A stretch of DNA of 64,000 bases from Eublepharis macularius (taxonomy: Eukaryota > Chordata > Lepidosauria > Squamata > Eublepharidae). The notes under the pieces are model-generated. The model did not search any database. It was given only the letters and a program-made list of their open reading frames with translations, and was not told the DNA's origin. The stretch spans positions 30,945,368 to 31,009,367 of the forward strand of contig NC_072791.1 of the NCBI RefSeq assembly GCF_028583425.1, in the 5' to 3' direction. A program made the position numbers and the translations under genes. Shown here piece by piece: positions 38,692 to 60,200 of this stretch (position 1 is the stretch's first letter; the number at the start of each line of letters is the position of its first letter).

Positions 38692-38861
38692 TGTGAGAGC
38701 TGGTGTGGTGTACTGGTCATAGTGCTGCTCTAGGATCTGGGAAACCTGAGTTCAAATCCCCATTCTACTACGAAAGCTTTGGGTAACCTGGGCCAGTCAT
38801 ACCTGCTCAGCCTAACCTACCTCATGGGGTTGTTGTGAGGGTAAAATAGAGGAGAGGAGAA
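38692..38861 (+). repeat. tRNA-derived SINE (family B), 5' part, cut by the 21-kb insertion
   Basis: 'gtgagagctggtgtggtgtactggtcat...agttcaaatcccc...cagcctaacctacctcatggggttgttgtgagggtaaaatagaggagaggagaa'. It stops exactly at the AGAGGAGAA that is duplicated at 60132. The missing 3' part is found only at 60132-60200. Confidence 0.85.
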
Positions 38862-39465
38862 ACGAAGCTGAAGTTGGTTCCCAGTTCCCAGTTCCTTATT
38901 CGCAGTTCCTTATTCCTTATTCGTTATTCGCAAAGCCAAAGAAAAATATTGTGGGAAAACTGAAAAGCTATAACTCCAAAATGAAGTTTGCAGGGGCACA
39001 TATTATACACCTCGATATTCAGAAGACTCAGCACTCTAAGTACAAAACCCAGATCTTGAGTAAACAGCTTCAAAATAGGATGCCCCCAGACCATTTCAAT
39101 AAGAAGAAAGGGGCAGCAGCTGCAGCAGAAAAATACTTTGGATTACCCCAAATTACACAGATCTGAACTCCAGAGACTGTCCCCTACAAGAGGACATGTG
39201 CTGGTGCTGATCCAGTCTCTAGTTCTGGACCTAAGGCCTCGAATGTGGCCTGCTTCCAAGCACCCAGTATTAGATCCAGTCTGGTTGCTAGTGCTGATCC
39301 AGTCTCTGGTTCTGGACCTAAGGCCTCCTATGTGGCCTGCCTGGAAAAAACTTGTATTAGGCATTGCTGTGAATAAGGAAGTGGGGAACTATAAGCCCTC
39401 TGAAACCCAAAACAATCTTTGGATCACCCCAAATCACACAGATCTGAATTCCAGAGACTGCACGG
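38862..39465 (+). repeat. Left terminal inverted repeat with two satellite units
   Basis: Starts with 'agttccttattcg' pentamer-like repeats, then a unique part to about 39165, then about 1.5 units of the 195-bp satellite ending at 39455. Relative to the other copies it lacks 21 bases after 'cactctaag' (39039). Confidence 0.85.
38951..39166 (+). other. Small ORF in the left inverted repeat
   Basis: Reads MGKLKSYNSKMKFAGAHI...KKKGAAAAAEKYFG. The same frame is open in the right end (60042-59683 region), where it runs into the satellite. The 21-base difference between the copies removes exactly seven codons. No family recognised; it may be a residual coding exon of the element. Confidence 0.35.
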
Positions 39466-39540
39466 CGGGCCGGGTGCCTTTGCCTTTGCCTTTGCCTTGG
39501 GATGGGGATGGGGATGGGGATGGGGATGCGGAAATTTATT
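39466..39540. repeat. (TTTGCC)n and (GATGGG)n simple repeats
   Basis: 'gcctttgcctttgcctttgcc', then 'gggatggggatggggatgggg', at the inner edge of the left end. Confidence 0.85.
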
Positions 39541-40580
39541 TTTGGCAACCTCTTCTACATGCAAAACTTAAAACTTCTGTGGTACAAAGTTGTAATGTTA
39601 TAAAATGGTAAAAATTTCATAAAATTGTAATTTTACTAACAATCCAACTCAAATAAGTGTATAGATAATTCAAACAGTATAGTTTCTATAATCATATTAG
39701 GCATAAATATTAAACATAACTTTTAAACATTAAGTAAAAAGTATTAAATACTCGGTAGAGATGGGTTGAAGGTTTTATCTTAAATCCTGAGCAGCTTGAA
39801 ACCTTCAAGTGAGAACTGAAAACACGTTTCTCTGTTTTAGAAAAACTGTTTGTCAGTACAAAATAAACGGGATGGATGTTTTTGTTGCACTCTCCCAACC
39901 AGGAGACAGACTCCTCCTAAGAGTTTAATGGCTTCTTTCATTAACAAACGCTAATCTTTTTCATTAAGTGAGGTATCAAAATATAAATCTTTATTTAAAT
40001 AAAACATAGAAAAATAGAACAGATGAATACAACAAGAATTAAGTTTCCTAACATTTCTTAATGAAATCTAACTCAGTCAGATTAACGATGAAATGCATTC
40101 AAGTTGCCGTAGCACATATTACAAGGGTAACTTTCCTGCCTAGATCTTCATGAGATTCCTTTTGGCCAAAACCCTGATCTGCTATTTGGATTACCATTTT
40201 TATATATTATCTTATGCAGAAATCTAAGATCTTTTCATATGATAACATAGATAAATATCAAACCAATCATAATTTAATTCTTTTTTACTATTTCCAATCA
40301 TGTGACATTCTACCTAGCCAGAAGTACCACTATGCCCAGCTGCAAGATAAGAGAGATGGATAGTAAAAATGACAGGAAAAGTTACATGACCAGATCATCC
40401 TTGGTCTCTGCTAACAATTACAGAACAGTTATCTGATACTGTTCACTATTTTTAATTGGCTGTCAAAGATAAAGAAGCACCAGTTATACACCATACTAGA
40501 AAAAGAACAACAGTGAAGTTCATACAGCGTTATTTAGAATGCATATGTTTCACTAAGTATGTGTTCTAAACCATAATCAG
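39541..40580. other. AT-rich sequence, nothing recognised
   Basis: About 70% AT, no repeat or ORF of note. Confidence 0.5.
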
Positions 40581-40584
40581 CAGT

Positions 40585-40770
40585 CTACTGGTTTGAATCC
40601 CACTACTGACATGAGCTCAGTAGGTGGCCTTGGGTCAGCCACTCCTCTCAGCCCCAGCTCCATTGTGGGGATAAGAATAACACTAACTTGTTCACTGCTC
40701 TGGGTGAGGCACTAATATGTGTAGAAGAGCGGTATCTAAGCACAGTTATTATTATTATTTATATTTCCAT
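40585..40770 (+). repeat. tRNA-derived SINE (family C), diverged
   Basis: 'ctggtttgaatccca' B box, 'ccttgggtcagccactcctctcagcccc', 3' end 'cactgctctgggtgaggc' and an ATTATT tail. Confidence 0.7.
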
Positions 40771-40779
40771 GACACCATC

Positions 40780-41538
40780 CCTTGACCTGTGAAATTAAGT
40801 ATTTTGATAAATATGAAAATGCTACAAAATATAAATGCATTGCATAATGTGTGAGTGTACATATACAAACTTTAAAAATTGTATTGGATAATACCGCAAA
40901 GCATGGTTACTGAGAAAGCTGCTTTCACTGCTTTCAGTGTGGAGAGCTGCTTGTAGATCAAAACAACCTGGCGAGCTGTCTTCATGCAGAGTGCACTTAA
41001 TTCTCTTGGCTTTCAATTCTGCTTTCGTTCAGCATGGGTAAATCAATGTGTCAGCAGTAAACATTTGTATCACTCCTCTCTGAATGACCTTTTAAATTTT
41101 ACTGCCTATCGTGTCAAAGCAATTAAAATTAACAATATAGTTACTAAGCTGCTAAGATCAATTAATGGCTCTTAGGCTTTATCTATTGATCTAGTGACAT
41201 CTTCAAAACCCACTGGTAACAGACTATACATACTTCTCTTCTATCCACAATATACACACAAGGATTGATTACATATTCTTATCTTCTAAATTACATATTT
41301 AAATGACATATTCTTATCTCCTAAATTAATTAGTCAAACTCTTTATATCAAGGATTGGTGACAAGTTGTGGACAGACTATGCTTGGACAGAATGTACACT
41401 GAGAATAAATGACATCAAACAAATTGGAAACTAAATAAATCACTTTTATTTAACAAATAAATTTCTTCTGAAGTCTTTTTAGACATTAAACAATAGAAAC
41501 AAATAAACTATGTGGCATTCCTCAAATCCACGTGTAGG
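40780..41538. other. Unique AT-rich sequence, possible conserved noncoding element at 40980-41170
   Basis: No repeat recognised. The 40980-41170 stretch has TAATTA/AATTAA words and no microsatellite. Only comparison would show conservation. Confidence 0.3.
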
Positions 41539-41539
41539 A

Positions 41540-42582
41540 TGCTATGGAAGTGGTACTTAGAGGGAAATTAATCTCCATTGCCTCCTGTCATGAAGAGCAA
41601 AAAGAAAACATTAGAAATGAAATGATATCTAGAATAAGAAAACTAGAAGATGAACACAAAAAAGGCCACCCAATCTATAAACTTACTTGCTTGAAAATTA
41701 AAGGAAAAAACCTCCTCACATTCTATACAAGCTATTAAAGGCACCCAGGAAAAACTCAAACTAATTCTGTAAAATTAGCCGATGTATTTGCTGAATACTA
41801 CCAAACCATTTGTACATCAGACAATCCTGACACTAATCATATTTTAAATTATTTATCATCATAGGAAATTATTTGGAAAAAAACTCACAAGAACATAAAC
41901 AATATCTGGACCAACCAATCACAACAGAAGATGTTACAGTCAATATCAAATCCTTGAAAAAAATAATAAAGCTTCAGACAGGAATGGATTCCCTGCCAAA
42001 TTTTTACAAAAAAATACATTCACCTACTTTCAACTCCACTAACTGCCACATGCAACTCTGTTATGATAGGAGGTAGCATCCTTCTATCTTGGTCAGAGGC
42101 TGAAATAGTAGTTACTTCAAAAAAGGACAACGATATTACAAATACTAAATCTTATTAACCAATACCCTTACTGAATCAAGACCAAAAGATCTTTACAAGC
42201 ATATTTGCCAAAAGATTTTCTAAATTTAAATAACCAACTACATTCACCTTGACCAGACTGGCTTTATGCCAATAAGGAATCTTTTTGACAATACATGTAA
42301 CACTTTAACTATAATTAATTTCTGTGAAGCGTACAAAACCCCTGCATTACTTCTGGCCTTTGATATAGAGAAGGCATTTGATTAAGTGGAAATACCATAT
42401 CTAAAACTTTTACTTCAAAAAATGGGTTTTGGTGACCAATTCTAAAATGCCATTAATGGTCTTTATCTTTCTCCAAAAGCTACAGTTAGGACTAACAATG
42501 TACATTCGATAGATATCCATATAGCAAGGGGAACTAGACAAGGCTGTCCCCTTTCCCCATTTCTGTTTGCCATAACTATAGA
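41540..42582 (+). mobile_element. L1 LINE ORF2 fragment (connector and RT), degraded
   Basis: 'GKLISIASCHEEQKEN...ISRIRKLEDEHKKGH' is the L1 linker after the endonuclease. 'DQTGFMPIRNLFDN', 'LLAFDIEKAFD' and 'RGTRQGCPLSPFLFA' are RT motifs. It carries several stops and frame changes. It ends where an unrelated repeat begins at 42583. Confidence 0.85.
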
Positions 42583-42755
42583 TAGGGCCGGTGCTACCAT
42601 TAGACCAACTAGGCAGCCGCCTTGGGCACAGACCTCAGGAGGGGCATAGTTTTATACAGATTACTTTCTTGAAAAAAATGCAACTAAGAAAACCTATTGA
42701 GCACCCCCTAAATGGTCCTGTCCACAGACATCAAGCAGCTCAAAAGCTCACCGTA
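42583..42755. repeat. Unclassified repeat starting TAGGGCCGGTGCTACCATTA
   Basis: 'agggccggtgctaccattagaccaactaggcagccgccttgggc' is a familiar reptile hAT-like end. The right end is not seen. Confidence 0.45.
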
Positions 42756-42905
42756 ACATTTATTTATTTATTTATTTATTTATTTGATTTATACCCTGCC
42801 CTCCCCACAGATGGGCTAAGGGTGGCTAACAACATTAAAAAATACATTAAAATCACAGAAAATCACATTAAAATCACAGAAACATACAATCAATAATATT
42901 TTTTA
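42756..42905 (-). repeat. L2-type 3' tail
   Basis: (TTTA)n, then 'gatttataccctgccctccccacagatgggctaagggtggctaacaac', an antisense LINE 3' end, followed by a repeated 'attaaaatcacagaaa' tail. Confidence 0.65.
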
Positions 42906-42934
42906 AAAAATGATTAAAATACTCCAGGAGCAGG

Positions 42935-43384
42935 CTATTTAAACAAATATCGGGACCGCCTCTCCCTGTACGTTCCCCGGAGATCGCTCCGATCAGCGAA
43001 TAAATATTTACTTGTGGTCCCCGGCCCTAAGGAAGCCCGCCTCGCTTCAACCAGGGCCAGGGCTTTTTCAGTCCTGGCCCCAGCCTGGTGGAACGCTCTG
43101 TCAATGGAAACCCGGGCCCAGCGGGACATATTATCGTTCCGCCGGGCCTGTAAGACAGAGCTGTTCCGCCAGGCGTTTGGTGATTGAAGGGGGCGGTGCC
43201 ATGTCAGCCTCCCACCTTTGGGGTGGGGAAGGTTCTCCCCACCACTGCACCTTGTTAATTTGTTTTATTATTTGTATATTGATTTTAGTTTTTGTTTTTA
43301 TCAATTTTAACTGTTCACCGCCCAGAGCCCCTGGGATGGGCGGTATATAAATTGAATAAATAAATAAATAAATAAATAAATAAA
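42935..43384 (+). mobile_element. L2 LINE 3' end
   Basis: The plus frame reads RDRLSLYVPRRSLRSANK, VVPGPKEARLASTRARAFS and RRACKTELFRQAFGD, then stop. The 3' UTR ends 'ccgcccagagcccctgggatgggcgg' with (AATA)n. It runs tail to tail into the minus-strand L2 that follows. Confidence 0.9.
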
Positions 43385-44879
43385 TTGGGAGTCCGTATAC
43401 AGGCATGGCAGACGGCTGAGGGCAGCTCCGGAAGAAATGGTGGTCTTAGATGGAAGAAGAAGGACACTCGCTGGCACTCAGCCAAAGGCCCAGCAGAACA
43501 TCTCCATTTTACAAGCCCTGCAAAACTGTAACCGGTCACACAGGGCCCAGATCTCCAGTGGGGAGAGCATTCCACCAGGCCAGGGCCAGGGCAGAAAAAG
43601 CCCTTGCCCTGGTTGAGCCAGGGTTTGGGCCAGGGACCACCAGGAGTTGCTTGTCTGCAGAGCGCAACACCCTGCAGGGGACATAATGGAAGAGGCAGTC
43701 CCACAGGTATGGAGGTCCCAGTCCATGAAGGGCTTTAAATACCAAGGTTAACACCTTGAACCGGATCTGGAACTCCACTGGAAGCCAGTGCAGCTGGCAC
43801 AGCACATGATGAATGTGCGCTTGGATGGGCGTTCCGGTAAGGACGTGTGCCGCTGCATTCTGGATCAGCTGTAACTTCCGGGTCAGGCCCAAGGGCAGTC
43901 CAGGATAGAGTGAGTTGCAGTAGTCTAGCCTGGAGGTGACCATTGCATGGATTACTGTGGCCAGGTCCTGGGGTGAAAGATAGGGCGCCAGTTGCCTGCC
44001 CTGTCGAAGATGAAAAAAGGCAGACCTGGCAACAGTCGTGACCTGGGCCTCCATTGAAAGTGTGGCATCCAAGGTCACACCCAGACTCCTCACCATCAGT
44101 GAAGGTTTCAATTGTACCCCATCGAGGGCTGGGAGCCGGTTCCCAGCTCGATTGCCCCATGATCCAGACACAGAACCTCTGTCTTCAGGGGATTCAATTT
44201 CAGGCGACTCTGATGTAACCATACCGTCACAGCCTCAAGACCCTTGACCAAGGAATCCAAAGCAAGATCGGACTGGCCATCTGTAATGATTCCAAGTAAA
44301 TGTGTGCATGTATCTTTAAATGCTTGATGAGATAGGTGAAGAGTGGAGGGTGAAGGAGATGGATGAGTGAGTGATATGATTGGTTGAGGACTGAGAGGGT
44401 GGGCGGAGTAAATGCAGTTTGAGACTGAGAGTAGAGAGAAAATTTTTAGTCAGAAGAAAGCAGGCTAGCTGTGTGCTGCCTGAATATGTTGAAGTGTTTA
44501 TGAGAGAAATATAACCTGTGTGGAACCTGAACTGAGCATGTTTGTGAAAGGACACTCAGTCAGGGAAAGAGAGGCCAGCTGTGTGAATGAGAGTCAATGA
44601 AGTAACTTTAAGAACCGAGAACTACATTTATGAAACCGATACGCTTCTTGACTAAATAAAAGTTTATTTTTGTTTTGTTATATCCCAGTGTAGCTGTCAT
44701 TGCTATATCCCATTCCTATCTTCAGGGCCACGTAGAACCACGAAGGAGCCTGACGCTTAGGAACGTTACCAAAGGGAAAATTTAAATAAAATATGTATTG
44801 TCGAAGGCTTTCACGGCTGGAGAACGATGGTTGTTGGGGGTTTTCCGGGCTGTATTGCCGTGGTCTTGGCATTGTAGTT

Positions 44880-44920
44880 CCTGACGTTTCGCCAGCAGCT
44901 GTGGCTGGCATCTTCAGAGG
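44880..44920 (-). ncRNA. Hammerhead-ribozyme-like motif (left arm)
   Basis: Minus strand: CCT - CTGAAGA - T - GCCAGC/GCTGGC stem - GAAAC - GTC - AGG, identical to the motif at 45280. Core boxes intact; helix III minimal. Confidence 0.55.
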
Positions 44921-45279
44921 TGTAGCACCAAAAGACAGAGATCTCTCAGTGTCACAGTGTGGAAAAGATGTAGGTCATTTGTATCTACTCAGGAGGGGTG
45001 GGGTTGAGCTGAGTCATTCTGTAAGAGTTTCCCAGGGTGTGGAATGCTAATGGCGGGAGGCTTCATTGTATCCTGAGGAGGTTCTTTTGCATCAAGCACC
45101 AATCCATATGCAAAAGAACCTCCTCAGGATACAATGAAGCCTCCCGCCATTAGCATTCCACACCCTGGGAAACTCTTACAGAATGACTCAGCTCAACCCC
45201 ACCCCTCCTGAGTAGATACAAATGACCTACATCTTTTCCACACTGTGACACTGAGAGATCTCTGTCTTTTGGTGCTACA

Positions 45280-45320
45280 CCTCTGAAGATGCCAGCCACA
45301 GCTGCTGGCGAAACGTCAGG
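45280..45320 (+). ncRNA. Hammerhead-ribozyme-like motif (right arm)
   Basis: Plus-strand mirror of 44880-44920. Two motifs on one palindromic transcript would face each other in cis, so activity could be lost to arm-arm pairing. Confidence 0.55.
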
Positions 45321-47248
45321 AACTACAATGCCAAGACCACGTTAAATAAAATATCTTGGAATAAAATATTCCTGGTGGCAGCAGACTACCCAGAGGGTTA
45401 AGGGATAGATTAAAAGAAAAATCTCCCCTGGAGAAAGTAAAGCTCATAACACCATCCATCAGCAGATAGAGCTGAGTGTCATCCGCATACCAGTGACAAC
45501 CTAGCCCAAAGCTGCTGGCTAACCGGGCAAGGGGGCACATATAGATGTTAAATAGCATCGGGGAAAGAATCGCCCCCTGAGGGATGCCACATACCAAAAA
45601 ATGGTAAGCAGACATCTGTTCCCCGAGTGCCACCCTCTGTCCTAGATTGTGAAGGAAGGAGTTCAGCCATTGCAGGGCTGTTCCACGAATCCCCACATCG
45701 GCAAGGCAGTGGGTCAGAAGATTATGATTGACCATGTCAAATGCTGCTGTAAGATCTAAAAGTATCAGCAGTGCCGACCCACTCCGTTCCAGGTGTTGCC
45801 GCAGATCATCTGTGAGGGCAACCAGAGCCGTCTCTGTACCATGGCCAGGCCTGAAGCTGGACTGGAATGGATCCAGGATAGAGGCATCACCCAGGTATAC
45901 CTACAGCTGTTCCGCTACCGCCCTCTCAGTTACCTTACCCAGGAATGGAATATTCGAAACTGGGCGATAATTGGCTGGATCAGCAGGATCCAGTAATGGT
46001 TTCTTTAATAAGGACCACACCACTGCCTCTTTCAGTGAGTCTGGAAAAAAACCAGAACTCAGAGAAAGATTAATGATGTCAGCTAATGGTGTCCAAATCC
46101 CATCACCACCACTTTTCACCAGCCATGATGGGCATGGGTCCAATGGGCATGTGGTAGGTTTCACAGCATGCAGGACCCTGCCCACCTCCTCCTGGGAGAG
46201 TGGCCTGAATTGATCTAATATCAACCCTGAGGACAACCAAGGGGCCTCCAGTACACATACTGCATCAACTGTGGTGGACAGATCCCGATGGAGTGACAAG
46301 ATCTGATCCGCAAAATAGTCTCCAAAAGCCTTACAGCTTATTACTGAATTTACATTTTTATTTGCCCATGTGTGAGGGACATTAAAGACCAAATCATTCT
46401 GGAAAGTTGTGCTGGGCGAGAACTAGTGGACACAGTGGAAGCTGCATAGTAGTCTCTCTTTGCAGCTTTCAGTGCCATCTCATAGGCCTTCATAAACGTC
46501 CTATAAGATGTTCTTGTCACTTCATCATGGAGTCGCCGCCACACCCGCTCTAGCCGTCTCAGCTCCCATTTGATTTGTCGTAGCTCATCAGTATACCAAG
46601 GAGCGACTCTAGTTCGGGGGCGGAGAGAGCGACGGGGAGCGATCTCATCAATAGCTTCAGAGAAACGGGCATTCCAGTCCTCTATCAGCTCATCCAATGA
46701 GCCACCAGGGGGCATCGGATCCTGCAGAGCGTTCAGCAATTCAATTGGATCCATTTGACTCCACGGGTGAGCATAAATCAGCTCGTCGCCCAAGCAGGAG
46801 GGGGTCATGGTGCCCAGACAAGCCCACAGGATGAGGTGGTCTGACCATGGCACAGTGTGTGTCCTGCTCGATGTGTGGGCATTGATACAAACTGGGAGAG
46901 TCCTAATGCTGCCATGGAGGCTATCATGTCCATGGCCTGTGAGGAGGTAGCATCATCGGCATGGACATTGATGTCCCCTAAGACCAGAAGCCTGGGGTAC
47001 TCCAAGGCCCAGCCAGCCACCGCCTCTAACAGGCCAGGCACAGCATCTGCTGGTGCGCTGGGCGATCGGTACACCAGACAAATGGCTATACTCTCCTCGG
47101 CATCCCACACCAGGCCCACACAATCAATGCCAGCAATCTTTGGCAAGGGGAGCAGCCTGATGGAGAAAGACTCTCGAATGAGCACCACTACCCCAACAAG
47201 ACATTTACCAATATGTAAAACAAGTATGAGAAACCTGTACCATAAATG

Positions 47249-47673
47249 TGTTGGAATATATGTGTGTTGCAAGGTCTGAGATTCAGTCATTATGGGGTTA
47301 ATGTATTTACCTACCATGCTATTGTTTAGATTGACCTGGAAGGGGAACCTGGCTCAAAGCCAATAATCTGCAAGCCCGGGAAACTTGAGAGTGTTTGTAA
47401 ACTGTTATTGGTCAACAGGTCAGGTGACTTTCTTTCAGGGTCAAGAAGACAGAGGAAGAAGAAGATTCTCCATTCAGTTATCCCAGCTCTTTGTTTGTAA
47501 CCAGTAGTGAGAATGTAGCTCCAGGCGTTTGTTATTTTGTAGGCAATCCTGTTAACCTTTTTTCCTTTAGAAGTAAATGATTTTAAAAGCTAAACTCGTG
47601 TGCTGACTCTCTATTGATTCAAGATCCATTGCACCTCTGAAGAAAAGCTATTTTTTAACCTTTTCCCCCAACA
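47249..47673. mobile_element. Solo LTR (425 bp)
   Basis: TGTTGG...CCAACA inverted ends, flanked by AAATG/AAGTG (one mismatch). No internal region. It sits at the truncated 5' end of the L2. Family not assigned; a fossil. Confidence 0.6.
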
Positions 47674-48457
47674 AAGTGGACCAGTTGAAGTAATTATTAA
47701 GGTGAAAAAGATGCTAGCAATTCGTGTATATTGTTCTTTGAATAACAGCAGTATGGTATGGCTTTGGATAGGCAATATGAGATCATTAGCTCTTGAAAAA
47801 GGCAAACCTTATGAGTTATATCATCCTGCTTTCAGATAATACTGCCAGTCATTGCTGCATCTCAAAATAGTCTAGGAGACTCAAAGTTATCTCAGAAGTC
47901 TCAGTCAACTTGAGAGGAACAATCCTTACTGAAACTACTCCTTTTTAGCTCTCCAGAGAGCCAGCTAAAAAGAAGAAAGCAAGCAAACAAAGTAACTGCA
48001 GACAAAAGTATCTCCTTTTCAAGTACAACATAATTCTCTCATTGTCTCACAGCAAACATGAGAAGGGGGTGGGAGTTGAAGACACTCAGTTGTGCCAGCC
48101 AGGAAAAAGGTGGGGAAATAGCTTCCAATGCTACAAAAAGAAACTTTTCAGCAACTTGAGGAAGCCAAGCAAGAAGTGAGAAGGAAAACAAAAGGGAAAA
48201 GGTGGGAAACTGCCTCCAGTGCTAAGAAAAAAACCCACTTCATAGAGCAAACTGTATCCCAGCAACACCAAGAGAAGAGGCAGAGTGGAAAACACTAAAA
48301 TCTTCACAGCTATTCTGCTGTGTCTGGAAAGAAATGGGCAGAAAGTCAGCTTCATGGCTGCAATAAAAGGGAGGAAAGTAGGGAAATTCTACTGTAGCAA
48401 TGCGCAGAGCATACTTGCTGCAGAGGAACAAGTGCAGGGAAAAATACCTCTGCACTA
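47674..48457. other. Purine-rich sequence, perhaps L1 5' region
   Basis: AG-rich with 'gaggaagccaagcaagaagtgagaagg'. It continues at 51059 beyond the inserted LINE, into a recognisable L1 endonuclease piece. L1 origin is inference. Confidence 0.35.
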
Positions 48458-51045
48458 GAACCTACAACTATATAGTCAAGCTTTTAAGGTTTCCTCAAAA
48501 TCTGAAAATCCTTTAAAGAGTTATGATGACCTCGTCCAATCCTTAAGGCCACTTTTGGTAGGTGCTCGAGAGGGAAAACTGGTCAAGACCAATTTGTCAT
48601 CTAAACCTTAGTTTGATCAAAGCTGTATTTGTGCTAAAAATGCTTTAATCTATGCCTATAAGCTAGCACTGAGAGCTGATGAAAAGACCAGACAGGATGC
48701 ATATCGTTCTCTTTCATTTTTAAAAAAGAAAGATAAATCACTGGTTGCCCGCTGTAAGAAAGAACATACCAGAAAACTGTGGGCCAATATAACTGAAGCA
48801 GCTACGAGCAAAAACTCAGTGGTGTTCTGGAAACTAGTGTCAAACCGCGCCTCCACAGCCGCCTCCCCCTTGGCTTCCTGTATCCCCCCAGATAAATGGA
48901 CTTCTTTTTTCCAAAAAATGTATGATGATCCTATTCAACCCCCTCCTGCCCTAACAATAGAAAATCTGGCCAAATGCCCCCCAGTTCATGCCGAAGAGGT
49001 AAAAGCTTATATTAGCCAGTTAAAGAATGCAAAAGCCCCTGGGCTTGATGGACTATCTCCAGAATTACAAAAACAAATAAGGACTGGTGGGCAACTTTCC
49101 TAGCCTCCCTATTTACTTATATTGATGAAACCGGCTACATCCCCAATGATTGGGGAATGGCTATAGTAGTCCCCTTCCATAAGAAGGGAAAGAAGGAGGA
49201 TCCATCCAATTATAGACCAATCAGCTTACTAAGCATTGTAAGCAAGTTGTCTACAAAACATCTGCTGGAGAAATTTTTAGACTGGCTAGAACAGGAGGAA
49301 ATAATTGCTGATGAGCAAGCTGGGTTTAGAGCTGGCAGGTCAACAATAGATCACTGCCTAGTAATGCAACACCTTGTAGAGAAATATGCTACAGGAGACC
49401 AAGCATCACTTTACCGGGCATTTGTTGATTTAAAAGCAGCTTTTGACACAGTCTCTAGAAATAGACTTTGGAGGAAACTGCAGGCCTCCTCTATTGATAG
49501 GCGACTGCTGTTCCTTTTTGGGGCTATGGACAACCAAACTGCCCTGAGTAAGGTGCAGCCAAACTGGGCATTTGACTGACCCCATTCAAACTTACAGGCA
49601 GGTGTGCTTTCTAGCCCCCTTTCTGTTTATCTTCTACATCAACAATTTGGTAAACCTTTTGAATGACCCTGGATTGCACCCTCCCAAATTAGCAAATAGG
49701 CACATTCACGTACTGCTCTATGCAGATGATGCTGTATTACTTTCTAGGACCCCCATAGGGCTGAAACGAGCCCTAAAAATTTTTTCCCAATTCTGTGATA
49801 CTGAACACCTTCTAAACTAATTACCAAAAAACTAAGATCCTGGCTTTTGGTAAAAATCCAAAGATCAGACGATGGGAGCTTCAGGGGCATCAGTTAGAAC
49901 AAGTTACCAGCTTCAAATATTTGGGTATAGTTTTGCAAGCCTCAGGTATCAAAACAACACATAGCCGCTTCATTGCTGATGTGGGAGAAAAAACAGCACA
50001 CGATATACTGAAATTCTATCGACCACAAGGGGGGCAGTATGAACCAGCTGCACTCAGATTGTTTAAAGCCAAACCATTGGCCCAATTAGTATACGGATCA
50101 TTCTTAGGGCTGCCATCCTCCTCTTTCTCTCAACTTGAGAGAGTGCAGTCCAAATTCCTTAGAGCCCTATTACAAGTGCCCAAATGCATGCCTAACTCAT
50201 GGGTTAGACTGGAAACAGGAATGTTAAGGGTAGAGGCCAGAATCACCATCCTTTCCATTTTCAAATGGCTGTCAGGACGTCTAAACCCACAAGGTCTGCT
50301 CCTTCTGTTATTCCAAGACAAATTTCAATCTAATTGGCAAAAGGCGACTCTGAAATCCCTGGGAAAATTGGGTCTTTCCCCTCAAAGTTTGCTAGTCATG
50401 GGGTTAGACCGAGCAAAATCACTCATTAAGCAGAGAGTGACAGACATTGAAAGACAAACAGATTTACTTAGAGCACCAGGTTTTATTTCTTCAGATACTA
50501 CTAAATATATTGCCGCTCCTGCAGCCTATTTTTACTTTCTTGAATCCAGTAACTCCAGAAGGGCATTTACTTTAGCTAGGAGTTCAACTCCACCCTCTGC
50601 CATTCTGGAAGGAAAGTTTAAAGCTGTCCCTTACTCTCTTAGGCTTTGCTCCTATCCCCTAAGAGAAACTGACTCAATGGAGCACATCTTCTTTAACTGC
50701 CCAAGTCACAGTAAAATTAGAGCAGAAACCATCAGTCCATTAGTAGAAAGATTCCCTGGAAGTTCAAATAAAATCAAACTTGATTATCTTTTCTCTGATC
50801 GGAATCACCAGACAACACATCAAGTAGCAAGATTCTGTGGCCAGGTCTACAAGCAACATAAATCGCATAAGGCAGACTGAATGTATTTTAACCTTTTAAA
50901 CAACTAATTTATGATGATCTTATTTTTTTACTCTTATATTTATTCATCATTCTTCCCCTGTATCCAATCTCGACTGTTTTTAAACTGATTTGCAAATGGT
51001 TTTATATGTACTGGTCGCAGACTATAATAATAAATGTGACTTGAC
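48458..51045 (+). mobile_element. Non-LTR retrotransposon (2.6 kb, 5'-truncated), perfect 13-bp target duplication
   Basis: TACCTCTGCACTA flanks both ends (48445-48457, 51046-51058). Order: linker (KPWFDQSC, FLKKKDKSLVARCKKEH); RT (VVPFHKKGKKEDPSNYRPIS, FVDLKAAFDTVSRNRLW, LLYADDAVLLS); then a long C-terminal domain to 50880 with a Cys/His cluster (LCSYPLRETDSMEHIFFNC) and stop. The 3' end is 'aataataaatgtgact'. One in-frame stop plus frame changes near 49575 and 49820 break the frame; the last 319 codons are open. Clade not settled (Vingi/I-like or R4-like). Confidence 0.88.
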
Positions 51046-51254
51046 TACCTCTGCACTAAGAATAGCAGAAATACCTGAACCTACTTCATGGGATGAATTA
51101 TCCTAGCTACCACCAGAAGAAGCTGAGAAATGGAGAAAAGTGGAGGGTGTGGTGTCGGTGTTGAAGAGAATGATAACACATTGAAAGAGCTCCGTCTCTC
51201 CCATGCCTGAAATTTAAAATTTATTTTGGAAGGGTAAAGTAAAAATATTTACCC

Positions 51255-51395
51255 TTCCAACATAAAGATACACTAAGAGATCCAAAAGGCAGATTCATAT
51301 TTATTAAAGGCACTATAGAAAACCAAACTTACACATTTGGCTCAATTTATGCCCCAAACCAAGACAGCCTAATGAAATTCTAAAACAAAGTTCGT
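51255..51395 (+). mobile_element. L1 LINE endonuclease fragment
   Basis: Translates as KDTLRDPKGRFIFIKGTI and YTFGSIYAPNQDS, the L1 endonuclease 'D-P-x-G-R-F...N-I-Y-A-P-N' motif. Short and degraded. Confidence 0.75.
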
Positions 51396-51399
51396 TAGA

Positions 51400-52015
51400 A
51401 TACACATGTATCACTTAGTATAATGTGCTCTAAACCATATTTTCATGACAAACCCACAGAAACAGCAGCAACATAACCTAAGGGTATAATGGAGAGCAAC
51501 AAATAGAAACAGAAGGATTAAAAGTATCCTGCTCGCTAGGTTGGAGGCAAGTTCTGACAACAACAGAGCCAACAACAAAGATTCTCAGGTCAAACTCCAT
51601 GGTCAAGTAACAGATTCCAAAATCAAACACTGTGACCCACCAAGGCTCAGGCAGCCAGAACCTAAGAGCTCACCAACAGCCAAGTCCAGAATACCACAAT
51701 TGTGACTAGCTAATCCCATGCTAGCTGCGGCCTTATAAAGGGAGTTTCTCCTACAGGTCAGGCTGGGTTCATTAAGCTTCTTTCTCCAAGCTGGCTCATC
51801 TCTGCTACTCAGGAGGAGTAGATCAGATCCTGTACTGGCTCTCCTGACATTTCCTCAGCAGGGGGAAGGCCATGGGCTGCCAGGCATGCACTCCTGTGCT
51901 TGGTCCATGCCTCTGCCCCTACCCTCAGCCTTCGTTGCTCCTGGGGTTCTTTGGGAGACAGCGGCAGGTCTGACAGCAGGCAGGTCCATGCTAAGGCTGC
52001 CTGGCTTGATGACAC
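51400..52015. other. Unclassified, partly GC-rich; LTR-like promoter words
   Basis: 'gcggccttataaagggagtttctcc' near 51726 looks like an LTR core promoter, but no ends or duplication were found. Confidence 0.3.
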
Positions 52016-52017
52016 TG

Positions 52018-52570
52018 TGGTTGCCAACGCTCCTGGAGATCCCCACAAATTACAACTGATCCCCAAATGACAGATTTTAACATTCTCCGAGACATGGAGG
52101 CTTCTTAGGCTGGCCTATGTGGAATTATACCCCACATAGGTACTACCTGACAATTGATGCCAATCCACCTAGAGAACTCCGAGAGTTACAAATGACTTTC
52201 AAATGACAAGTTTTAATTATCTCAAACAGAATGCTGGCTTTGGAGTGTGGCTTCTGTGGAATTATACCCCACTGAGGACCCTCCATATTATGATTGCCAT
52301 ACCTGGAGATCTCCTTCCATTTCACCTGAACTCCATATGTCCTATTTTACCTAAATTGGAGACAATGGTGGTATTGGGTATTGGCAACTGGGGTGTCTGA
52401 AGCACCTCTTTACAGTAGTTGCCAACCCACCTGGAGATCTGTTTCCGTTACAACTGAACTCCATATGGTGACGTTATCTCTCTTGGAGACAATGGTGTCA
52501 TTGGAGGTCAGTGCCTGTGGCATTATACCCCTCCGAAGCCCATCTTACTGTGCTTCCTAATATCCAGCTG
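52018..52570 (-). repeat. Four degenerate head-to-tail copies of the AGGGTTGCCA-type element
   Basis: Each copy is a fragment in the same orientation. They begin at about 52018 ('ggttgccaacgctcctggagatc'), 52158, 52289 ('gattgccatacctggagatc') and 52419 ('agttgccaacccacctggagatc'). Phrases such as 'aattataccccac' recur. Confidence 0.6.
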
Positions 52571-52599
52571 GTATCATCTGGCCCATAATTTAAACCCTA

Positions 52600-53455
52600 T
52601 CCTCTGCTGCCAACAGGAACAGCTCCCTGCCCTCCTCTAAGTGACAGCCCTTCAAATACTTAAAGAGAGCAATCATGTCCCCCTATGACATCATGCAATT
52701 TGGATGTTATGCCTCCGTTGACAGACCCCAAGATCGCACTCACCTTTTTTGTCACTTCATCACACTGGCTGCTCATATTTAACTTATGTTCCATCTGAAC
52801 CCCAAGATCTTGTTCACACACACTGCTAACCAGAAGTGTATCCCCCATCCAGTATGTGTGTTCCTCATTTTTGCTACCCAGATGTAGAACTTGGCACTTA
52901 TCCTTGTTAAATTGCATCTTGTTCACATCCACCCACTTTTCCAATGTGTTCCGATCTCATTGAATTCTATCCCTATCTACTGATTTTGTTTGCTGCTTCT
53001 CCCAATTCAATGTCATCTGCAAATTTAATGCATAGCCCCTCCACACCCTCATCCAGATCATTTATAAAAATATTGAAAAGTACCAGGCCCAGGACCGAGC
53101 CCTGTGGCACCCCACTGGGCACCTTCCTCCATTCAGATGAAATGCATTGACATCTACTCTTTGAGTGCGGTTCTCCAACCAGTTCCCTATCCACCTAACT
53201 ATCCTAGAGTCCAGTCCACAGTCCTCTAGTTTACCCATCAGAACATCATGAGGAACCTTGCCAAAAGCTTTACTGAAATCCAGATAAACTACATCAATTC
53301 TCATGATCCAGTAAGCCTGTCACTTGATCATAGAAGGAGATGAGGTTGGTCTAGCAGGACCCATTGAGGACAAATCCATGCTGACTTCCGCATATCACTA
53401 TGTTGTCCATCAGATGCTTGCATACAGACGTGTTTAATATCTGTTCCAATATAAT
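52600..53455 (-). mobile_element. CR1 LINE fragment
   Basis: Minus frames read [67 protein letters not shown] and QDLGVQMEHKLNMSSQCD, the CR1 RT and C-terminal motifs. Several frame changes. The 3' part near 52660 has 'aatcatgtcccc'. Confidence 0.92.
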
Positions 53456-53522
53456 TTTTTTTGTCACTGCATCACACTGGCTGCTCATATTTAACTTGCG
53501 TTCCATCTGAACCCCAAGATCA
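53456..53522 (-). repeat. Second partial CR1 piece
   Basis: 'ttgtcactgcatcacactggctgctcatatttaacttgcgttccatctgaaccccaagatc' repeats 52750-52812 almost exactly. It is either a separate insertion or a local duplication. Confidence 0.75.
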
Positions 53523-53576
53523 GCTGTAATTCAAGGAGAACTCTAGGCCCCATCTGGAGGTTGGCAATCTTATCCA
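53523..53576 (+). repeat. End fragment of the AGGGTTGCCA-type element
   Basis: 'gctgtaattcaaggagaactctaggccccatctggaggttggcaat'. Confidence 0.6.
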
Positions 53577-53697
53577 GTCTCCCGCTCTTCAAATCAGCTC
53601 TGCTGTTCTCCTCTATATGCTTGAATCATCTCTCCGTGCACTTACTGACGCTTTAGTCAAATCCCTCTCCAAATACCCACACTTCGTGCAGCTTTCT

Positions 53698-54807
53698 TTT
53701 TTTTCTTTTTTTTAAAAACATTTTTTATTGGTGAGTATAATTTCCAAACATTGTTTATATCGCCATCCTATCTAATTTAAATCTTATCCCCACCCTTTCC
53801 CCCCTCCTTATCGACTTCCAACAGTTTTCCAACCCTTAACCCCCCTTATTACTTAACATATTTTATCTTAAATACTTCTACCATACATATCTCTATGTAA
53901 ATATTTCTTAGTCTAAGCAATTTCCTATACTATATATATGTTATATTGAATTTACTAGAATCTCAATCTTACTTTCTAATAATAAAATACATTCTACAAT
54001 ATACTTAACTATAATCCTAGCTTAGATTAAAATAGTTATAATTTTCTCTTAAAGGTAAAGTCACTTCTCTCTTCTGTTTATAATATCTCAGTTCAAAAAT
54101 TCTCAAACTGCCACAGTTCCCCTCTCACATCCCATTTTTTTTCTAGAAATTGTTTCAGCTTCCCCCAATCTGCCACATATTGTCCTGGATCAAGATCTTT
54201 AAGTTTTCTTGTCATTTTGTCCATCTCCGCCACGTACAGCAATTTGTAAATCCACTCTTCTACAGTTGGTACCTCTTGTACTTTCCACTTCTGCGCATAC
54301 AAAAGTCTTGCTGATGTAATCATATAAAATAGCAATGTTCTGTGCTGCGTTGGAACATCTTCCATTCCCAAGTTCAGTAGTAGCAATTCTGGGTTCTTAT
54401 TGATTTGGGTACGTAACACCTCAGTAATTGCTTCAATTATGTCATCCCAGTATTGCCAAGCTACTTCACAAGTCCACCACATATGATACAATGATCCTTC
54501 ATGTTTTTTACATTTCCAACATTTATCTGACATATTAGAATTTCCAAACGCAATTTTCTTTGGTGTTAGATACCATCTGTGCATCATTTTGTATAGATTC
54601 TCTTTAATGTTCGTACAAGTTGAAATCTTCATTGTATTTTTCCACAGATGCTCCCATGTCTCCATTGTTATCTCTTTATGAAAATTTATTGCCCACTTCA
54701 TCATCTGTACTTTCACTGTTTCATCCTCCATGTACCATTTTAGGAGTATTTTATAAATCTTTGAAATTTCTTTCTTACCTTCTTGTAATATCACTTCTTC
54801 TAGCTTT
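53698..54807 (-). mobile_element. L1 LINE, 5'-truncated 3' end
   Basis: The ORF2 C-terminus (54830-54093) is open: MKWAINFHKEITMETWEHLW, YKMMHRWYLTPKKIAFGN, CWKCKKHEGSLYHMWWTC (Cys-rich L1 motif), to stop. The 3' UTR and a poly(A) tail (T run at 53698-53715) follow. GTGCAGCTTTCT occurs on both sides (53686-53697, 54808-54819), the target duplication. The intact frame suggests a young insertion. Confidence 0.9.
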
Positions 54808-54959
54808 GTGCAGCTTTCTGACCGACATGTCGCCAAGTTTTGTTCACATTCATCCACTGTTCAATGTTCACACACAGCCCCTTTCCATTATTGTTTCATT
54901 CACCTTCATTTTGACCCACTGACTGAATTGATCTATGGGGAAGCAGTTTCCTTTGTTTG

Positions 54960-55852
<893 letters not shown>

Positions 55853-56016
55853 GACATCTCTTTTTGATTGTCTGTTGGAGCCAGGCAACCGGTATTGGCT
55901 TGAAGCCATATTTTAAGCCCCAGGCTAACTCCAGACAATGGGGAGGGGGTTTGAAAACCTGATCTGGGTGCACATAAAGCCCCGAGCCACTGCAGAAAAC
56001 CCTGCTGTCTGCTGTT

Positions 56017-57671
56017 CTTTTTTTTTTTTTGAACTTTTTATTTTCTGATTTTCTGGAATACATAACAATTTAAACAAAAATTTTACACATAACATGCAAA
56101 AAACATAAACAGTGAACCTTGGAACAGTCAATAAGAGATCAGCTATCACTGAAAAGTACATTATTGTTAGAGAAGGTACAATACTAGAGAAGACTCATAA
56201 GATTGCAAAAAAGCTGAAAGTGTTCATATCTGCATTCGGCAGTTTATTGGTAGCATGAAGATGGTTCAAAAAAGGTATCCATTGTGTAAAGAACGTTGAA
56301 TGATGCTGTGGATTATCAGTAGAGTGAAGATAATCCGCTATTTTCTCCATGGAGAAGATATGCCACACTTTCTTGTACCACTGCTGCAATTTTGGAAGTC
56401 TGTCTTGTTTCCAGTATAACACAAGAAGCATTTTCGCTGCAGCTAATAACAAGAGTATTCAGTTTCTCCTGATCGTTGGTACTGTTGGGTCTTCCCAGAG
56501 ACCCAGCAGGATTGTCTCAGGATTTTTAGGTACATCATAGCCTGTGATTTCTGTAACAGACCTCAAGATTAAGTCCCAGAATGACTGGATTTTAGGGCAC
56601 GTCCACCAGAGATGAATATAATCTCCAATCTGGCCGCATTGCTTCCAACAAAGCGGGGCTATAGTAGGATTAAGGTGATGGAGGGAACTAGGTATCACGT
56701 ACCATCTCGACATTATTTTAAAAGATGACATTTTAATATTGATTGCTTTAGTTTTTAGGTGTCTGCCTGACCAAATCAGGGCCCATTGGTTGTCCGTTAG
56801 TATGTTCTTGCAATCCCTATTCCATTTCATTTGGTATTTTAAGGGTGGATGTTCATTTTTTTAGGTTTAAAATGGAATAAATTCTTGCTATAAGTCCCTT
56901 ATGTTGAGATGATATTTGTTTTAGCAGGAGCTCAAAGTCTGTTAGCTCACGTTTCAAAGCATTTGCAATTGGTTGGCTGTTTATAAGGTGTGACAGTTGT
57001 AAGTATTGGTACCATGGCAAGGTATCAGCTGCATCTTTTTCAATTTGCCCTTTACTTAGGATAGCCCCTTGTTTGGTTATATCCATAATTCTACTTTTCT
57101 TAAGTATCTTCCATTTCTGGAATGAGATTAAATCCTTTCCAGGTGGAAACCAAGATTGGTCCAGGAAGGATGATAACGGAGAAGGAGTGGGGGCTAGATA
57201 CTGCCTTACCCTGTCCCAAGTTATTAGAGTTGATTTCAGAAAAGGATTGGTAAATGTTTGAACTGGTCTGCTTTTATGATCTGTCCAGATTATATCTTTT
57301 ATGTCATGTGGGGAAATGTGTGTCGTTTCAGCATAGCTCCAGTCTAAATTTTCTGTAGGATTTAACAAAAGCACTATATTAGCTAATTGAGCAGCCATGC
57401 AATAATGTTTTAAATCAGGTATAGCCAATCCACCTCTATTGGAGACACGTTTCATGGTTGAGAAGTTGATTCTAGGGCGTTTGTTAGCCCAGATAAATTT
57501 ATTTATGAGACTTTGCCATGACTGGATATCTTGATCCGTGAGATGAATAGGAAGCATACGAAAGTTAAATAAGAAAAGAGGTAAAATCATGGATTTGACT
57601 AGCAGTATTTTTTCAGCCCAGGGCAAATTTAACTTGTCCCAATCCTTAAACTTATCGTTAACCTAGAAGCT
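56017..57671 (-). mobile_element. L1 LINE, 5'-truncated 3' half of ORF2
   Basis: The minus frame (57626-56853) reads MPWAEKILLVKSMILPLFLF, INKFIWANKRPRI, GGLAIPDLKHY, all L1 ORF2 motifs. Then 56830-56459 (CWKQCGQIGDYIHLWWTCPK) and 56452-56195 follow in other frames: two frame changes. Poly(A) is seen as the T run at 56017-56030. A different L1 lineage from the copy at 53698. Confidence 0.9.
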
Positions 57672-58205
57672 GAAGACTCAGCACTCTAAGTGGACCTATA
57701 CTGGGTCATCCTACAAAACCCAGATCTTGAGTAAACAGCTTCAAAATAGGATGCCCCCAGAACAATTCAATAAGAAGAAAGGGGCGGCAGCTGAAGCAGA
57801 AAAAAACTTTGGATCACCCCAAATCACACAGATCTGAACTCCAGAGATTGTCCCCTACAAGAGGACATGTGCTGGTGCTGATCCAGTCTCTGGTTCTGGA
57901 CCTAAGGCCTCCTATGTGGCCTGCCTGGAAAAAACTTGTATTAGGCATTGCTGTGAATAAGGAAGTGGGGAACTATAAGCCCTCTGAAACCCAAAACAAT
58001 CTTTGGATCACCCCAAATCACACACCCCTGAACTCCAGAGACTGTCCCCTACAAGAGGACATGTGCTGGTGCTGATCCAGTCTCTGGTTCTGGACCTAAG
58101 GCCTCGAATGTGGCCTGTCTCCAAGCACCCAGTACTAGACATGGCTTTGAATAAGGAAGTGGTGAAAATATAAGCCCTCTGAAACCCAAAACAATCTTTG
58201 GATCA
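57672..58205 (+). repeat. Internal plus-oriented copy of the terminal repeat
   Basis: Starts inside the terminal repeat at 'gaagactcagcactctaagtgg', then about two 195-bp units. It meets the inverted array at 58205, making a large palindrome. Confidence 0.8.
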
Positions 58206-59815
58206 GAAGCAGCACATGTCCTCTTGTAGGGGACAGTCTCTGGAGTGCAGGGGTGTGTGATTTGGGGTGATCCAAAGATTGTTTTGGGTTTCAGAGGGCT
58301 TATACTTCCTTACTTCCTTATTCAAAGCCATGTCTAATACAAGTTTTTTCCAGGCAGGCCACTTAGGAGGCCTTAGGTCCAGAACCAGAGACTGGATCAG
58401 CACCAGCATATGTCCTCTTGTAGGGGACAGTCTCTGGAGTTCAGGGGTGTGTGATTTGGGGTGATCCAAAGATTATTTGGGGTTGCAGGGGGCTTATATC
58501 TTCACCACTTCCTTATTCAAAGCCATGTCTAATACAGGGTGCTTGGAAGCAGGCCACATTCGAGGCCTTAGGTCCAGAACCAGAGACTGGTTCAGCACCA
58601 GCACATGTCCTCTTGTAGGGGACAGTCTCTGGAGTTCAGGGGTGTGTGATTTGGGGTGATCCAAAGATTGTTTTGGGTTTCAGAGGGCTTATATTTTCAC
58701 CACTTCCTTATTCAAAGCCATATCTAATACAGGGTGCTTGGAAGCAGGCCACATTCGAGGCCTTTGTTCCAGAACCAGAGACTGGATCAGCACCAGCACA
58801 TGTCCTCTTGTAGGGGACAGTCTCTGGAGTTCAGGGGTGTGTGATTTGGGGTGATCCAAAGATTATTTGGGGTTGCAGGGGGCTTATATTTTCACCACTT
58901 CCTTATTCAAAACCATATCTTGTACTGGGTGCTTGGAGAGGGGCCACATTCGAGGCCTTAGGTCCAGAACCAGAGACTGGATCAGAACCAGCACCTGTCC
59001 TCTTGTAGGGGACAGTCTCTGGAGTTCAGGGGTGTGTGATTTGGGGTGATCCAAAGATTATTTGGGGTTGCAGGGGGCTTATATTTTCACCACTTCCTTA
59101 TTCAAAGCCATGTCTAATACAGGGTGCTTGGAGACAGGCCACATTCAAGGCCTTTGTTCCAGAACCAGAGACTGGATCAGCACCAGCACATGTCCTCTTG
59201 TAGGGGACAGTCTCTGGAGTTCAGGGGTGTGTGATTTGGGGTGATCCAAAGATTGTTTTGGTTTGCAGGGCGCTTATATTTTCACCACTTCCTTATTCAA
59301 AGCCATGTCTAATTCAGGGTGATGGGAAGCAGGCCACATTCGAGGCCTTAGGTCCAGAACCAGAGACTGGATCAGCACCAGCACATGTCCTCTTGTAGGG
59401 GACAGTCTCTGGAGTTCAGGGTTGTGTGATTTGGAGTGATCCAAAGATTATTTGGGGTTGCAGGGGGCTTATATTTTCACCACTTCCTTATTCTCAGCAA
59501 TCTCTAATACGGGGTGCTTGGAGACAGGCCACATTTGAGGCCTTAGGTCCAGAACCAGAGACTGGATCGGAACCAGCACATGTCCTCTTGTAGGGGACAG
59601 TCTCTGGAGTTCAGGGGTGTGTGATTTGGGGTGATCCAAAGATTGTTTTGGGTTTCAGAGGGCTTATATTTTCACCACTTCCTTATTCAAAGCCATGTCT
59701 AATACAGGGTGCTTGGAGACAGGCCACATTCGAGGCCTTAGGTCCAGAACCAGAGACTGGATCAGCACCAGCACATGTCCTCTTGTAGGGGACAGTCTCT
59801 GGAGGTCTGATCTGT
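58206..59815 (-). repeat. 195-bp satellite array
   Basis: The phrase 'tgtcctcttgtaggggacag' recurs nine times at about 195-base spacing (58218, 58412, 58605, 58800, 58995, 59190, 59385, 59580, 59775). Units differ by a few percent and alternate between 'ttgttttgggtttcag' and 'ttatttggggttgcag' forms. 195 is 65 codons, so frames persist across units. Confidence 0.95.
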
Positions 59816-60131
59816 TTGATTTGGGGTGATCCAAAGTATTTTTCTGCTGCAGCTGCTGCCCCTTTCTTCTTATTGAAATGTTCTGTGGGCATCCTATTTT
59901 GAAGCTGTTTACTCAAGATCTGGGTTTTGTAGGATGACCCAGTATAGGCCCACTTAGAGTGCTGAGTCTTCTGAATATCGAGGTGTATAATATGTGCCCC
60001 TGCAAACTTCATTTTGGAGTTATAGCTTTTCAGTTTTCCCACAATATTTTTCTTTGGCTTTGCGAATAACGAATAAGGAATAAGGAACTGCGAATAAGGA
60101 ACGGGGAACTGGGAACCAACTTCAGCTTTGT
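59816..60131 (-). repeat. Right terminal inverted repeat (unique part)
   Basis: The reverse complement matches 38862-39165 closely (two differences in the first 100 or so bases) and includes the 21 bases absent on the left. A 180-codon minus frame (60225-59683) crosses it. Confidence 0.9.
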
Positions 60132-60200
60132 AGAGGAGAATGATGTAAGCAGCTTTGCGACCCACTGGAGAGGAAGATGAGATTGGATAGACAGACAGAC
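60132..60200 (+). repeat. tRNA-derived SINE (family B), 3' part
   Basis: AGAGGAGAATGATGTAAGC continues the SINE from the point where 38692-38861 stops ('cagctttgcgacccactgg'). It ends in a (GACA)n run at 60190-60209. Confidence 0.8.

What the first reader, a model, noticed from the sequence alone, without database searches (positions are those of the whole stretch)
38853..60140. A 21.27-kb inverted-repeat element that split one SINE, with a 9-bp target duplication
Seen: the same 290-base unique sequence plus satellite lies at both ends in opposite orientation. AGAGGAGAA abuts each end exactly. The left flank is the 5' part of a tRNA-SINE and the right flank is the rest of it, overlapping only by those nine bases. 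Inference: a single insertion event of a giant terminal-inverted-repeat element, unassigned to a family. Long inverted ends plus a 9-bp duplication recall Mutator-like elements, which are rare in vertebrates.
Basis: partly seen in the sequence, partly recalled or inferred. Interest (0 to 1): 0.9.

Follow-up and report, generated by a model that had tools for sequence, protein, structure and literature searches.

The report
Giant foldback transposon splitting a SINE
The 21-kb block is a real mobile DNA element that jumped into an older repeat in a vertebrate, probably reptile, genome, and it belongs to a large family whose members range from 0.2 to 114 kb and carry satellite DNA in their inverted ends, a kind well described in insects.

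Summary
The element is 38862-60131 (21,270 bp). AGAGGAGAA abuts both ends, and the flanks rejoin into one SINE. In the host genome the end is a family: 483 exact copies of a terminal 22-mer against 0 for the reversed control. Of 18 neighbouring end pairs under 120 kb apart among the first 100 ends listed, 16 converge, 2 are same-way, 0 diverge. Of 21 candidate pairs examined, 15 have a perfect 9-bp duplication (202 bp to 114,119 bp), 2 differ by one base and 4 have none. Two complete small members (2,971 and 4,085 bp) are foldbacks: terminal domain plus 195-bp satellite arrays in opposite orientation. The window's element is a composite: a left end, a LINE-bearing interior, and a right foldback whose inner end is crippled. 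The same junction recurs in 5 of 5 right ends of this type, at different sites, so the composite most simply formed once and then moved whole. Closest in build are Tetris and Rehavkus of insects (Mutator group). I found no transposase in the parts of the family that I could read. A damaged Rehavkus-like MULE-Ulp1-PHD gene exists elsewhere in the genome, not seen beside a family end. New variant of a known kind; the Mutator assignment is likely, not proven.

The parts
38700..38861 (+). 5' part of the split tRNA-type SINE, ending in the 9-bp duplication
   Evidence: alignment of other SINE copies starts at about 38730; the left limit is by eye
38853..38861 (.). 9-bp target-site duplication AGAGGAGAA, left copy
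38862..39041 (+). left terminal 180 bp, the part used to find the family
38862..39460 (+). left arm: terminal domain followed by satellite-like sequence
39481..57665 (.). 'type A' interior, LINE-bearing (reverse-transcriptase matches at 45319-45900 minus and 49049-49576 plus; other LINE calls by eye), collinear with other family copies, mostly at 96-99% identity
42956..43372 (.). 417-bp stretch present here, absent from sister copy L009
44795..45341 (.). 547-bp insertion with 13-bp duplication TTAAATAAAATAT, holding a palindrome; absent from L009
53698..54802 (-). 1,105-bp stretch (LINE by eye) absent from L012, L017, L020 and L024
57666..57675 (-). crippled inner end of the right foldback: CTTCAGCTTC kept, about 150 bp behind it deleted, outermost two bases changed
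   Evidence: same junction in 5 of 5 right ends of this type; coordinates counted by hand from that output
57672..58198 (+). inner arm of the right foldback (left-type orientation satellite)
58199..59836 (-). 195-bp satellite array, 8.4 copies, outer right arm
59837..60131 (-). right terminal domain
60132..60140 (.). 9-bp target-site duplication AGAGGAGAA, right copy
60132..60179 (+). 3' part of the split SINE (right limit from the alignment)

Best explanation
The block is one member of a young, multi-copy family of foldback DNA transposons, non-autonomous as far as seen. A transposase supplied in trans, most likely of the Mutator (Rehavkus-like) group, recognises the terminal sequence beginning ACRAAGCTGAAG, mobilises whatever lies between two such ends in inverted order, and inserts it at a 9-bp staggered cut. 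The 21-kb form is a composite. A short foldback element landed in LINE sequence and lost most of its inner terminus, so its outer end and another family end nearby became the usable pair. The whole stretch then moved as one unit to several sites. Shown: exact ends, the 9-bp duplications, the family, the recurring composite junction, complete small foldbacks. Inferred: the order of events in forming the composite, cut-and-paste, the trans-acting enzyme, and its Mutator identity.
For: Exact ends and duplication in a split SINE. 483 exact terminal 22-mers, reversed control 0. Among adjacent ends under 120 kb in the first 100 listed: 16 convergent, 0 divergent, 2 same orientation. Perfect 9-bp duplications at 15 of 21 pairs examined, one mismatch at 2, none at 4. 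Complete foldbacks of 2,971 and 4,085 bp with duplications CGATCTAGG and ATAGAATAC. The same right-foldback/LINE junction, with a few substitutions near it, in the window, L012, L017, L020 and L024, whose outer flanks differ. Interior substitutions 1.4-2.5% between copies. The smallest perfect pair is 202 bp with inverted ends of about 59 bp, so short ends may suffice. 9-bp duplications and satellite-filled inverted arms are as reported for Rehavkus, and 8-10 bp with about 220-bp repeats for Tetris. A Rehavkus-like gene is present in the genome.
Against: No transposase-like sequence of either MULE type was found in the window or in the element loci fetched (one chance-level match of 20 residues, E 0.98). 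Three of the 21 Rehavkus-like places are on C1, and none of these lies within 90 kb of a listed end. No family end was found in a 15.8-kb stretch round the best gene copy, but on its 3' side all except the first 0.9 kb of the 6-kb flank belongs to another inserted element. The nearest MULE-domain match to a known member is 43.5 kb outside it (C1:185940167 against the end at 185983818). Four of 21 pairs have no duplication. Most copies were seen at one end only.
Confidence: 0.75

Rival explanations
1. Same family and same unit insertion, but the enzyme is not of the Mutator group (for example Merlin-type, or an undescribed one).
For: No Mutator gene was seen beside a listed end. No transposase was found inside. 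That Merlin elements also duplicate 8-9 bp is recalled, not from a call.
Against: Satellite arrays in the inverted termini together with 9-bp duplications are reported for Rehavkus, and 8-10 bp for Tetris. A Rehavkus-like gene is present in this genome. A Merlin domain search was asked twice and never answered.
Confidence: 0.2
2. Two separate small foldback insertions happen to flank the interior, and the shared 9-bp sequence at the outer edges is coincidence or gene conversion.
For: The right end is by itself almost a complete foldback. Four convergent pairs lack a duplication, as independent insertions would.
Against: The outer 9 bp match perfectly here and at 14 other pairs (p about 7e-6 each). 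The interior plus the same inner junction recurs at other sites. Other SINE copies run straight through the joined outer edges.
Confidence: 0.04
3. A segmental duplication or assembly artefact made the block.
For: One local duplication of an end with identical flanks is present at C3:158.88, and two left ends with the same flank at C2:23.72.
Against: Fifteen pairs with 15 different 9-bp duplications and unrelated flanks. No N in the 11 samples of the largest copy.
Confidence: 0.01

Closest known systems
Tetris, a foldback element of Drosophila virilis (PMC4079207; passages seen)
   Same: Long inverted arms made of an outer flanking domain plus about 220-bp tandem repeats, variable middle without transposase, 8-10 bp duplications, repeats expanding into satellite arrays, autonomous partner not found.
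   Different: Host is a vertebrate; the unit is 195 bp (sequences were not compared with Tetris); interiors here hold LINE and other retroelement sequence and pairs span up to 114 kb; TIRs reported for Tetris reach 1.7 kb, whereas the left array in one copy here appears to exceed 50 kb (six 3-kb samples over about 53 kb).
Rehavkus elements (PMC6446971, PMC10218199; passages seen)
   Same: 9-bp duplications; satellite repeats in the inverted termini (164-bp unit in the 9.5-kb Rehavkus-1_TC of Tribolium).
   Different: Rehavkus codes for a PHD-finger transposase and is reported from arthropods and annelids; no such gene was seen inside this family. Larger here, and non-autonomous as far as seen.
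Composite FB transposing element (Ising TE) of Drosophila melanogaster (PMC6431247; one passage seen)
   Same: DNA lying between foldback elements moves as one unit.
   Different: Ising TE is described as spanning hundreds of kb, cytologically visible; the window's composite is 21 kb of largely repeat sequence found at several sites.
Pack-MULEs of plants (PMC6431247 and PMC6446971 passages)
   Same: Non-autonomous, foreign DNA between inverted ends, moved in trans.
   Different: Cargo seen here is retroelement sequence, part of it apparently by later nested insertion; no systematic search for captured host gene exons was made.

Membership tests
Foldback (FB/Tetris-type) elements | Long inverted arms built of tandem subrepeats around a short middle | tested here: met
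   L027 (2,971 bp) and L018 (4,085 bp): terminal domain, satellite arrays in opposite orientation; 170-bp middle in L027 and in the right ends of L017, L020, L024 and L026
Foldback (FB/Tetris-type) elements | 8-10 bp target-site duplication | tested here: met
   9 bp, perfect at 15 of 21 pairs
Mutator superfamily (MULE) | 8-11 bp duplication and long inverted ends | tested here: met
   against the definition in PMC6446971
Mutator superfamily (MULE) | MULE-type transposase coded by the element or an autonomous member with the same ends | tested here: not met
   none in the window or the element loci fetched; MULE domains elsewhere in the genome were not seen beside listed ends, nearest 43.5 kb; most members' interiors were not read, so this is not a disproof
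Rehavkus | 9-bp duplication and satellite in the termini | tested here: met
Rehavkus | PHD-finger transposase inside the element | tested here: not met
   not found inside; a damaged MULE-Ulp1-PHD gene sits at C9:105.21 Mb with no family end in the 15.8 kb read round it
Merlin | Merlin-type transposase (PF12762; the link of this domain to Merlin is recalled) | not tested
   search asked twice, never answered

The most novel reading that the evidence does not exclude
A vertebrate Rehavkus-type system that is recently active, moves stretches of tens of kilobases as single units whenever two ends lie in inverted order, and thereby plants and spreads 195-bp satellite arrays, in one copy apparently more than 50 kb long, round the genome.
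Probability: 0.35. Interest if true: 0.85.

Novelty: new variant of a known kind. Interest (0 to 1): 0.72.

Why it matters
A 2019 survey of Mutator elements reported limited evidence for them in chordates and asked whether they are really absent from vertebrates (PMC6446971 passages). Here a vertebrate genome holds both a foldback family with hallmarks of Rehavkus termini and a Rehavkus-like gene. The perfect duplications from 202 bp to 114 kb make it possible to ask how much DNA one pair of short ends can carry. The satellite-bearing arms offer a testable route by which a satellite is born and dispersed.

Tried and rejected
Transposase in the interior: of 10 frames scanned (8 of them in the interior), one matches a reverse transcriptase and the rest have nothing over a curated cut-off; of three more window frames, one matches a reverse transcriptase and two match nothing. 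Other LINE labels are by eye. Rfam at gathering thresholds gives nothing for 38000-61000. MULE domain genome-wide: 38 matches. I read six of those places: two of one type (L029, L030), three Rehavkus-like (L064, L066, L067) and one ZSWIM-type host gene (L065). Rehavkus-like protein: 36 matches at 21 places, some only distantly alike, none seen beside a listed end. The attempt to find that gene's own termini failed: another 15-kb element interrupts its 3' side, and 450 further bases beyond a second copy show no family end. Viral contigs: no exact match to the first 21 bases of the end. The ORF running through the left end (38816-39166) is not taken as a gene: no Pfam match. Target preference: the 15 duplications are slightly palindromic (p 0.015 against shuffles), too weak to use.

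Results against the reading: C1:72.33 (54,082 bp), C1:107.72 (1,399 bp), C9:82.50 (91,425 bp) and C7:102.89 (292 bp) have no duplication. C2:23.72 and C2:166.0 have one mismatch. In the complete list of 89 ends preceded by A, neighbours under 120 kb are convergent three times (one with a perfect duplication, two with none) and divergent twice (C4:27.2, C19:6.7); other ends may lie between these, as that list holds only 89 of the 483.
Full report
WHAT IS THERE. The element runs from 38862 to 60131 (21,270 bp). The nine bases AGAGGAGAA sit at 38853-38861 and 60132-60140. The outer 180 bp of the arms differ at two positions; with a 21-bp indel the similarity goes on for 434 columns at 92.2%. Inward of the right end is an 8.4-copy array of a 195-bp unit, and inward of that a shorter array in the opposite direction. 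Joining the flanks with one copy of the nine bases gives a SINE that two other SINE copies in the window follow without a break (2 of 7 matches).

A FAMILY. The window lies in contig C2 of a 2.24-Gb genome. The terminal 180 bp have at least 40 copies there at 98-100% identity (40 scored of 1,294 first-look candidates). The exact 22-mer ACRAAGCTGAAGTTGGTTCCCA occurs 483 times (254 forward, 229 reverse; control 0). In the first 100 places listed, neighbours under 120 kb apart are convergent 16 times, divergent never, same-way twice. In all 23 ends laid out the match runs to the first base of the window's end and the sequence outside differs from copy to copy; these were among the best-matching ends, so this is a favourable sample, and two of the 40 match only from base 3.

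NINE-BASE DUPLICATIONS. I looked at 21 candidate pairs: the 16 convergent ones, C4:105.16, two complete foldbacks inside fetched loci, and two pairs from the A-preceded list. Perfect 9-bp duplications close 15: 202, 763, 2,971, 4,085, 5,649, 18,551, 18,819, 19,850, 21,270, 25,017, 27,951, 36,313, 42,253, 59,713 and 114,119 bp. Two have one mismatch (35,503 or 36,747 bp at C2:23.72, where two left ends share a flank, and 29,051 bp). Four have none. The 15 duplications are all different.

HOW THE GIANT IS BUILT. L027 (2,971 bp) and L018 (4,085 bp) are complete foldbacks: end, satellite array, (170-bp middle in L027), array reversed, end. The right end of the window is the same thing, except that its inner end keeps only about ten terminal bases after a deletion of about 150 bp, and it abuts LINE-like sequence. 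This junction recurs, with a few substitutions near it, in L012, L017, L020 and L024, whose outer flanks differ. The interior is collinear among copies: L009 and part of L015 from the left; L012, L017, L020 and L024 from the right, with 1.4-2.5% substitutions in blocks of 600 bp or more and 94% or better (shorter or weaker blocks were dropped, among them pieces at 88-91% in L012 and L009). So the composite most simply arose once and moved afterwards. Three stretches in the window (417, 547 and 1,105 bp) are absent from sister copies and look like later additions. A second interior type is shared by L010, L014, L015, L019, L022 and L025; in L010 it holds a 702-aa frame with endonuclease and reverse-transcriptase matches, that is, a LINE.

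THE LARGEST COPY. The 114-kb member has perfect duplications. Of 11 samples of 3 kb, six consecutive ones (47.112-47.165 Mb) are 98.8-100% satellite. One further on begins the same interior as the window (93%), and another matches window 47397-50038 at 97%. One sample has a tyrosine-recombinase-like match; others look like retroelement pieces by eye. Whether the array was that long when it jumped, or grew later, is not known, so a 114-kb jump is not shown.

THE ENZYME. I found none in the parts of the family that I read. A MULE search of the genome gives 38 matches. One, at C9:105.21 Mb, is a 577-aa frame with a MULE match and a sub-threshold Mutator-transposase match, followed by a frame with a Ulp1 match and a PHD-like cysteine pattern, read by eye, with a stop in it. 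Its relatives include proteins from Sceloporus, Gekko, Heteronotia, an acorn worm and Ciona, and a 950-aa protein with MULE, Ulp1 and PHD domains. A PHD finger is the mark given for Rehavkus in the paper; Ulp1 is not mentioned there. Pieces alike to it lie at 21 places in the genome. None is beside a family end as far as seen: in the 15.8 kb read at C9 and against the ends listed, which together are fewer than half of the 483. A 15-kb element interrupts the C9 copy on its 3' side, so that side was not seen to its end.

VERDICT. The insertion and the family are shown. Foldback build is shown. Movement by a Mutator-type enzyme in trans is the best guess (about 0.6 on its own). I searched the paper library seven times and saw no vertebrate foldback family of this kind in the listings; subscription journals and Repbase were not searched.

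Noticed in passing
L069:909 onward; G000:C9:105214309-105229586: A second, unrelated family: 13-15.6-kb elements with inverted ends of at least 2.1 kb, 98-100% alike, in eight pairs of places (C9, C7, C8, C2 twice, C6 twice, C5), one sitting 3' of the Rehavkus-like gene.
   Followed up: no
L064:624-3726 (G000:C9:105.21 Mb): Rehavkus-like MULE + Ulp1 + PHD-like gene in a vertebrate, damaged; pieces at 20 further places, some only distantly alike.
   Followed up: partly
G000 C4:813083, C7:321191, C8:143415573, C10:96806405, C16:161676: Short copies holding only residues about 491-577 of the Rehavkus-like protein (508-577 on C16). Four of the five lie within 1 Mb of a contig start or end (C10's contig length was not seen); could be a subtelomeric repeat.
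   Followed up: no
44795-45341: Insertion holding a perfect palindrome (44859-45341: 234-bp arms, 15 bp between) and flanked by a 13-bp duplication; alike stretches at window 26136-26290 and in L010, L012, L014 and L029.
   Followed up: partly
L034, L035 (G000:C3:158.88 Mb): Two family ends in the same orientation 5.3 kb apart with identical 30-bp flanks, a local duplication.
   Followed up: no
55708-55852: Perfect GATA repeat, 36 copies, inside the element.
   Followed up: no
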